Assembly: GCA_034440635.1 (NCBI GenBank)
Contig: JAOTON010001032.1
Span: forward strand, 124,001 to 188,000
DNA: 64,000 bases
Direction: 5' to 3'
DNA from: Lepas anatifera
Taxonomy: Eukaryota > Arthropoda > Thecostraca > Lepadidae
Shown: positions 3,051-31,564 of the stretch, in pieces
How the letters are laid out: every line of letters starts with the position of its first letter
How positions within the stretch are numbered: the first letter of the stretch is position 1
Program-made: the position numbers and the translations under genes
The notes under the pieces: model-generated
What the model was told of the DNA's origin: nothing
Databases searched by the model: none
What the model saw: only the letters and a program-made list of their open reading frames with translations

Positions 3051-3156
3051 CAGACAGCGTCTGTTTGCAGTCCTGCTCCAGTTTGCGGGCATGTTCGAAC
3101 ATGTCTTTCGCCGCCTTCGTACACACCTTCTCCATCGGGTACACCGACTCACGAAC
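3051..3156 (-). CDS. dlg5: dlg5 exon: GUK-like domain, near C-terminus (last visible)
   Basis: The acceptor is cgctgtttggacag, phase 0; the donor is CTGTCTG|GTGAGT, phase 1. It encodes VRESVYPMEKVCTKAAKDMF, then EHARKLEQDCKQTLSG, the helical end of GUK. Vertebrate DLG5 has roughly 35-40 further residues; that terminal exon was not found between 1 and 3050. A tRNA-derived SINE ends about 24 bases downstream of the donor. Confidence 0.92.

Positions 3157-31564: not shown

What the first reader, a model, noticed from the sequence alone, without database searches (positions are those of the whole stretch)
3051..31564. Tandem repeats anchored on splice junctions across one gene
At nine or ten dlg5 exon borders a tandem repeat starts at the junction, contains it, or begins within ~10-15 bp. 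They are 4957 donor/(GA)n; 5668 acceptor/29-mer; 12320 donor/(GA)n; 14370 donor/GA-rich; 22510 acceptor/(CT)n; 25854 donor/(GA)n; 28020 acceptor/pyrimidine minisatellite; 29296 acceptor/70-mer; 30223 donor/20-mer; 31426 donor/22-mer. Three arrays reiterate the splice site itself. This suggests a recurrent process seeding repeats at exon borders, such as replication slippage, R-loop-linked breaks, or selection for duplicated sites.
Basis: partly seen in the sequence, partly recalled or inferred. Interest (0 to 1): 0.82.

Follow-up and report, generated by a model that had tools for sequence, protein, structure and literature searches.

The report
Splice-site-spanning tandem repeats in barnacle dlg5
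In one barnacle gene, short DNA repeats start at, or copy across, about a quarter of the exon edges, including a stretch with eleven spare copies of one splice site; this resembles 'mirage' repeats described in lancelets and is probably a side effect of how splice signals and introns mutate rather than a new system.

Summary
The gene is dlg5 on the minus strand of a barnacle genome: best relatives are Pollicipes (71%) and Amphibalanus (68%). Of 15 wholly intronic arrays, 6 lie within 15 bp of an intron end (0.65 expected, 0 of 20,000 randomisations); 3 more span a junction. Two further clear junction-spanning duplications and one weak one were missed.

The pattern splits in two. (1) Junction-spanning repeats (units 22-81 bp) have the structure of amphioxus 'mirages' and human CBS junction repeats. 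They are no commoner at borders than inside these introns, so no special seeding is needed. (2) (GA)n after donors and (CT)n or pyrimidine arrays before acceptors look like slippage on the splice consensus, though motif specificity was not significant. Dispersed repeats show no significant excess over both borders, but lean to donors.

There is no evidence for R-loops or for selection on duplicated sites. The genome-wide test could not be run. New member of a known kind; moderate interest.

The parts
31426..31564 (-). dlg5 exon a (PDZ1, most 5' dlg5 exon found in the window)
30962..31429 (-). 22-bp minisatellite (21.5 copies by TRF) spanning the donor of exon a; 8 copies read CCG|GTACGT exactly like the real donor
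29994..30210 (-). 17-bp minisatellite beginning 12 bp after the donor of exon b (30223)
29294..29483 (-). 70-bp minisatellite (2.7 copies) spanning the acceptor of exon c (29296)
28040..28372 (-). pyrimidine-rich minisatellite (sense strand) ending 19 bp before the acceptor of exon d (28020)
25754..25844 (-). (GA)n on the sense strand, 9 bp after the donor of exon f (25854)
22514..22671 (-). (CT)n on the sense strand, running into the pyrimidine tract of the acceptor of exon i (22510)
14317..14366 (-). interrupted (GA)n from +4 of the donor of exon m (14370)
13585..13703 (-). two-copy, 80-bp-spaced duplication of the acceptor plus about 30 bp of exon m2 (13615); not in the finding
13538..13615 (-). 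exon m2, found by alignment to barnacle relatives
12235..12317 (-). (GA)n from +3 of the donor of exon o (12320)
8800..8908 (-). weak two-copy, 81-bp-spaced duplication of the acceptor of exon q (8815); could be chance
5660..6025 (-). 29-bp minisatellite (12.5 copies) spanning the acceptor of exon s (5668): 11 decoy copies of TTTCAG|GGAGAGTAA
6027..6215 (-). degenerate 30/60-bp layer continuing the same array, with six further TTTCAGGGAGAGT-like motifs (four keep CAG)
5476..5575 (-). two-copy, 56-bp-spaced duplication of the donor of exon s (5547) with about 29 bp of exon; not in the finding
4904..4953 (-). (GA)25 from +4 of the donor of exon t (4957)
3051..31564 (-). dlg5, 23 exons from PDZ1 into the GK domain (a 31564-31426, b 30356-30223, c 29296-29171, d 28020-27791, e 27001-26833, f 26034-25854, g 25323-25131, h 23179-22918, i 22510-22314, j 20820-20648, k 19506-19321, l 17302-17168, m 14555-14370, m2 13615-13538, n 13148-13035, o 12492-12320, p 11476-11269, q 8815-8685, r 7072-6947, s 5668-5547, t 5186-4957, u 4568-4455, v 3156-3051)

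Best explanation
Two ordinary mutational processes meet at exon borders in a repeat-rich barnacle gene. (1) Tandem duplications of 20-80 bp strike the introns often. When one spans a junction it is tolerated, because the surplus copy with its decoy splice site is spliced away as intron and only the exon-proximal copy is used. That copy is held by selection, so it stays as a master next to which new units can keep arising while distal units decay. The result is a 'mirage' array anchored on the junction. (2) Splice consensus sequences are low-complexity seeds: GTRAGAG after the exon and the pyrimidine tract before it. Replication slippage grows them into (GA)n at donors and (CT)n or pyrimidine arrays at acceptors, in intron direction only, because exon-ward growth is selected against. 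Shown here: the anatomy, the placement statistics, decoys at least as strong as the real site, premature stops if decoys were used, and decay of distal units in the two long junction-spanning arrays. Inferred: slippage and unequal exchange as the copying steps, constraint as the anchor, the master-copy step, and correct splicing in the animal.
For: Junction-spanning copies occur at about the rate of any intron position: 5 of 46 against 317 of 3,000; repeated 24-mers are 19 of 1,595 in exons, 23 of 381 across borders and 1,469 of 12,151 in introns. Decay away from the exon, by identity of neighbouring units inside the TRF limits: rho -0.76 for 31426 (21 units) and -0.67 for 5668 when both layers are counted (18 units); a fall also at 29296 (4 units). 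In the 29-bp array units 2-5 and 6-9 share one order of variants, a sign of a 4-unit block duplication (read). The AG and CT microsatellites next to borders have the sense of the consensus: AG after 4 of 4 donors, CT before 1 of 1 acceptor; three of the four AG arrays begin at +3 or +4. Use of a decoy would introduce a premature stop in 22 of 22 cases: 11 acceptors at 5668, 8 donors at 31426, and the copies at 5547, 13615 and 8815. Dispersed repeats in the same introns show no significant excess over both borders: 3 within 30 bp, 1.03 expected, 1,265 of 20,000 trials.
Against: The motif test is underpowered: AG/CT microsatellites near a border 4 of 7, other motifs 0 of 3, Fisher P = 0.20 (4 of 5 and 0 of 3, P = 0.14, at the stricter length). 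The 17-bp array 12 bp after donor 30223 fits neither class. Decay with distance is absent within the 29-bp layer alone (rho -0.10) and in the 30223 array (rho -0.01); the stronger value for 30223 came from running past the array's end. Dispersed repeats lean to the donor side (3 within 30 bp, 0.51 expected, 149 of 20,000), which could hint at a general process near donors. One gene, no transcripts, no second individual.
Confidence: 0.6

Rival explanations
1. Exon borders are active mutational hotspots: a transcription- or splicing-linked process such as R-loop-associated breaks repeatedly starts tandem repeats there.
For: Wholly intronic arrays are about nine times more frequent near intron ends than expected (6 against 0.65); dispersed repeats also lean to the donor side (149 of 20,000 trials); the 17-bp array at 30223 has no consensus seed.
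Against: Junction-spanning duplications are not enriched over intron background; the microsatellites at borders are AG or CT in the sense of the consensus; dispersed repeats show no significant two-sided excess. No R-loop data.
Confidence: 0.15
2. Duplicated splice sites, GA-rich donor flanks or long pyrimidine tracts are kept by selection because they make splicing more reliable or regulate it.
For: Eight decoy donors and nine decoy acceptors score at least as well as the real site; the acceptors of exons c and s score second and fifth lowest of 23.
Against: Use of each of 22 decoys tested would give a premature stop, so spare sites are liabilities for the protein; distal units decay in two arrays; copies are no commoner at borders than elsewhere in the introns.
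Confidence: 0.1
3. The arrays are stages of intron gain or intron sliding, as proposed for amphioxus globin mirages and some Drosophila introns.
For: PMC3087553 proposes mirages as raw material for new introns; PMC2891723 reports tandem duplication and sliding behind some novel Drosophila intron positions. Here two duplications carry about 30 bp of exon.
Against: No intron-less relative and no intron-position comparison was available; the clear unit spacings (22, 29, 56, 70, 80 bp) are not multiples of three (only the weak 81-bp one is).
Confidence: 0.08
4. Assembly error or after-the-fact selection: repeats collapsed or expanded by the assembler, in a gene singled out because it looked striking.
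For: Two frameshifts in GC-rich exon stretches; one gene in one window.
Against: Placement excess is far beyond chance; units carry ordered variants and the two long junction-spanning arrays decay with distance, which assembler stutter would not be expected to make.
Confidence: 0.07

Closest known systems
'Mirage' minisatellites of amphioxus (Adh3, globins BflGb6 and BflGb9, TnC, PGBD5)
   Same: Tandem copies of an exon-intron boundary, at donors and at acceptors, units of about 10-160 bp, many but not all copies carrying AG/GT signals (PMC3087553 and PMC3902484, passages read).
   Different: Barnacle, not lancelet; at least 5 of 46 borders of one gene, up to 11 near-perfect decoy acceptors plus a degenerate layer. 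RT-PCR, haplotype and somatic-instability evidence is reported for amphioxus and was not available here.
Human CBS 31-bp VNTR c.1444_1467+7(16_21) and 844ins68
   Same: A VNTR unit of exon plus 7 intronic bases, and a 68-bp duplication of an intron/exon junction in which splicing favours one site so that the extra piece is removed (PMC2630376, passages read).
   Different: Human, single loci with population data; here several in one gene and no population or RNA data.
Intron gain or sliding by tandem duplication of proto-splice sites (Drosophila)
   Same: Duplications carrying splice signals (PMC2891723, passages read).
   Different: Here the introns exist already (median about 1 kb); no gain or shift is shown.
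SSR-rich crustacean genomes (penaeid shrimp)
   Same: Long (AG)n in an intron (PMC7878876, passages read).
   Different: No link to splice junctions in the passages read.

Membership tests
Mirage (junction-spanning minisatellite) | Repeat unit contains exon sequence, splice site and intron sequence | tested here: met
31426, 5668, 29296; 5547 and 13615; 8815 weak.
Mirage (junction-spanning minisatellite) | Both donor and acceptor boundaries can be duplicated | tested here: met
   Donors 31426 and 5547; acceptors 5668, 29296, 13615.
Mirage (junction-spanning minisatellite) | Many repeat units keep AG or GT splice signals | tested here: met
   In about 555 bp after donor 31426, 8 of 33 GT, and in 560 bp before acceptor 5668, 9 of 61 AG score at least as high as the real site.
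Mirage (junction-spanning minisatellite) | Normal mRNA splicing is not disturbed | not testable with these tools
   No transcripts; relatives' predicted proteins read straight across the joins.
Mirage (junction-spanning minisatellite) | Length differs between haplotypes or tissues | not testable with these tools
   Only the window was available; requests to the window's assembly did not complete.
Consensus-seeded splice-site microsatellite (my working class) | AG after donors, CT before acceptors, beginning within the consensus | tested here: inconclusive
   5 of 5 in the expected sense, but motif specificity P = 0.14-0.20.

The most novel reading that the evidence does not exclude
Barnacle genes in general carry splice-site-anchored tandem arrays, with exon-proximal master copies amplifying outwards, so that a large share of introns hold several equally strong decoy splice sites and the spliceosome must rank them by exon definition or order of transcription alone; such arrays would feed intron sliding and gain in a lineage with extreme nucleotide diversity.
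Probability: 0.15. Interest if true: 0.75.

Novelty: new member of a known kind. Interest (0 to 1): 0.42.

Why it matters
Junction-spanning arrays of this kind are described in my sources for lancelets and for a human gene. Two searches bear on crustaceans: minisatellite, crustacea, intron, splice (9 papers listed) and barnacle, genome, tandem repeat, intron (15 listed); I saw titles and abstract starts, and passages of two of the papers, and met no barnacle or other crustacean case. If general in barnacles, such arrays would be natural experiments on how a spliceosome picks one of a dozen identical sites, and a source of variation in intron position. The decomposition also warns that tandem repeats at splice sites need not mean a border-specific mutational process.

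Tried and rejected
Amphioxus as the source: suspected from the mirage literature, rejected by protein relatives, which are barnacles. The first border test counted repeats inside exon n (and, at cut-off 40, exon h) as border hits; it was redone without them, and the figures quoted are those. The idea that reiterated splice sites are enriched at borders was tested and not supported. The idea that anything inserted in these introns abuts exons was tested with 12 dispersed repeat blocks: not significant for both borders together, a lean to donors alone. Motif specificity of border microsatellites: right direction, not significant. Decay of units with distance: first measured against the exon-proximal unit and partly past the array ends; on re-measuring inside the TRF limits it stands for 31426 and for 5668 with both layers, not within the 29-bp layer alone nor at 30223. 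For that reason I lowered confidence in the best explanation from 0.62 in my draft to 0.60. In one search the decoy test used fixed multiples of the unit length, some of which are not real sites; it was redone on real sites only. Ten open frames between 36 and 60 kb were scanned for other genes to use as a second sample: one sub-threshold C-type-lectin-like hit, no usable spliced gene. Paper searches for microsatellites near splice sites gave nothing usable. Rfam found nothing at gathering thresholds in the window.

Full report
What was checked. The finding claims that nine or ten exon borders of dlg5 carry a tandem repeat at the junction. I rebuilt the gene from the sequence. It lies on the minus strand. 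Twenty-two exons were first placed by eye with GT and AG at every border, and the leftover bases printed fit at all 21 joins. They were then corrected with two relatives' proteins: exons l, q and t got acceptors further downstream, and an extra exon, m2 (13615-13538), was added, giving 23 exons and 46 borders. From exon g to v the joined frame is open for 911 codons. At each of the ten, at least one relative's protein reads straight across the join. Exons d and f each contain a frameshift relative to those proteins; an assembly indel is the likely cause. The coiled-coil 5' part and the last exon of dlg5 gave no minus-strand match in the window at E up to 1.

What organism. A search with the 1,217-residue model (residues 300-1217) gave 339 proteins; the two best are barnacles, Pollicipes pollicipes (71% identity) and Amphibalanus amphitrite (68%), well ahead of the next hit, an insect at 43% (best 120 listed). 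The window is therefore from a barnacle, probably neither of these two species (inference from the identities). My first guess, amphioxus, was wrong.

Is it more than chance? TRF gave 71 rows on the window. A first test counted 10 of 44 intron ends within 15 bp of an array of score 50 or more, 0.87 expected, but it included a repeat lying inside exon n (and, at cut-off 40, one in exon h). The corrected test separates three junction-spanning arrays from 15 wholly intronic ones. Of 44 intron ends, 5, 6 and 7 have such an array within 10, 15 and 20 bp, against 0.45, 0.65 and 0.85 for random placement in the same introns; none of 20,000 trials reached them. At score cut-offs 40, 70 and 100 the observed counts were reached in 0 to 6 of 20,000 trials. 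The gene is also richer in arrays than the rest of the window: 3,091 of 28,514 bases against 1,093 of 35,486 at score 50 (exon-internal arrays included).

Two classes. Class one is junction-spanning duplication. The donor at 31426 lies in a 22-bp array of 21.5 copies, the acceptor at 5668 in a 29-bp array of 12.5 copies, and the acceptor at 29296 in a 70-bp array of 2.7 copies. Two clear cases were not in the finding: the donor at 5547 (44 nt repeated at 91%, 56 bp apart) and the acceptor at 13615 (39 nt, 92%, 80 bp apart); a third, at 8815, is weak (28 nt, 79%) and could be chance. With a uniform rule, 24-mers centred on the border and 18 of 24 matches within 700 bp on the intron side, 5 of 46 borders have a copy (3 and 2 of 46 at 19 and 20 matches; the 29296 array, whose units vary in length, is missed by this rule). 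So do 317 of 3,000 random intron positions (291 and 268 at the stricter cut-offs) and 59 of 3,000 positions outside the gene. Counted otherwise, repeated 24-mers are 19 of 1,595 in exons, 23 of 381 crossing a border and 1,469 of 12,151 in introns. Junctions are not favoured over introns.

Class two is arrays that begin just inside the intron. Four are (GA)n after donors (4957, 12320, 14370, 25854) and two are pyrimidine arrays before acceptors (22510, 28020). The AG and CT arrays all have the sense of the splice consensus, and three AG arrays begin at position +3 or +4 of the donor. This is the class in excess. The link to motif is suggestive only: AG/CT loci near a border 4 of 7, other motifs 0 of 3, Fisher P = 0.20; with longer runs 4 of 5 and 0 of 3, P = 0.14. 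The 17-bp array at 30223 belongs to neither class. As a control, 12 dispersed repeat blocks in the same introns have 3 within 30 bp of a border, 1.03 expected, reached in 1,265 of 20,000 trials; all three are at donors (149 of 20,000 for that side alone), which I report as a possible hint against my reading.

How the arrays behave. Inside the TRF limits, neighbouring units grow less alike with distance from the exon in the two long junction-spanning arrays: rho -0.76 for 31426 (21 units) and -0.67 for 5668 when its degenerate distal layer is included (18 units). Within the 29-bp layer alone there is no trend (rho -0.10, 12 units), and none at 30223 (rho -0.01, 13 units), which does not span its junction. 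An earlier, cruder measure had overstated the trend at 30223 by running past the array. The distal layer at 5668 holds six more TTTCAGGGAGAGT-like motifs, four of them with CAG. Units 2-5 and 6-9 of the 29-bp array share one order of variants, a block duplication (read). Scored with a matrix from the other 22 sites, 8 of 33 GT in about 555 bp after 31426 and 9 of 61 AG in the 560 bp before 5668 are at least as good as the real site. Use of any of 22 real decoys tested (11 acceptors at 5668, 8 donors at 31426, one each at 5547, 13615 and 8815) would bring in a premature stop.

Most likely mechanism. Tandem duplications arise often in these introns. One that crosses a junction is harmless as long as the exon-proximal copy is used, because the surplus is spliced out; the retained copy is fixed by selection and can act as a standing master. 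Splice consensus sequences give slippage its seeds, and growth is possible only into the intron. The copying steps, the role of constraint, the master copy and correct splicing are inferred.

Comparison with what is known. Junction-spanning minisatellites were named mirages in amphioxus: PMC3087553 describes them in globin genes, with RT-PCR suggesting that regular splicing is not disturbed, and cites earlier Adh3 work; PMC3902484 adds PGBD5 and cites TnC (passages read; I looked for the original Adh paper under a DOI recalled from memory and it was not held). Human CBS has a 31-bp VNTR named c.1444_1467+7, that is, running seven bases into the intron, and a 68-bp duplication of an intron/exon junction where splicing favours one site (PMC2630376, passages). 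Tandem duplication and sliding explain some novel Drosophila introns (PMC2891723, passages). Barnacle background: in P. pollicipes introns average 2,077 bp and nearly all repeats recognised are simple or low-complexity (PMC8917513, one passage); B. improvisus has very high nucleotide diversity (PMC8270832, title and passages). The five clear junction-spanning cases meet the structural features of mirages; the features that need RNA or several haplotypes could not be tested.

Verdict. It is a new, dense example of a known kind in another lineage, with the decisive genome-wide test still to do.

Noticed in passing
27791-28020 and 25854-26034: dlg5 exons d and f each contain a frameshift relative to two barnacle proteins; probably assembly indels in GC-rich stretches.
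   Followed up: partly
31565-64000: No minus-strand match (E up to 1) to the 5' coiled-coil part of two barnacle dlg5 proteins, so the intron before exon a would exceed 32 kb although the median intron in the window is about 1 kb.
   Followed up: partly
4357-4426 and 19233-19302: The same 70-bp dispersed element (90% identity) sits 29 bp after the donor of exon u and 19 bp after the donor of exon k.
   Followed up: partly
17344-17417: ARAGORN calls a tRNA-Arg (tct) on the + strand just upstream (in gene sense) of the acceptor of exon l; possibly part of a SINE.
   Followed up: no
7504-8268, 33757-34606, 37074-37911, 61303-62148: A dispersed repeat of about 765-850 bp, 75-91% identical between copies, one of them in a dlg5 intron.
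   Followed up: no
49568-50143: Open frame of 191 aa with a sub-threshold match to a C-type-lectin-like Pfam family.
   Followed up: no
15911-15997: Perfect 26-nt inverted repeat with 35 nt between the arms in the intron between exons l and m; possibly a MITE.
   Followed up: partly
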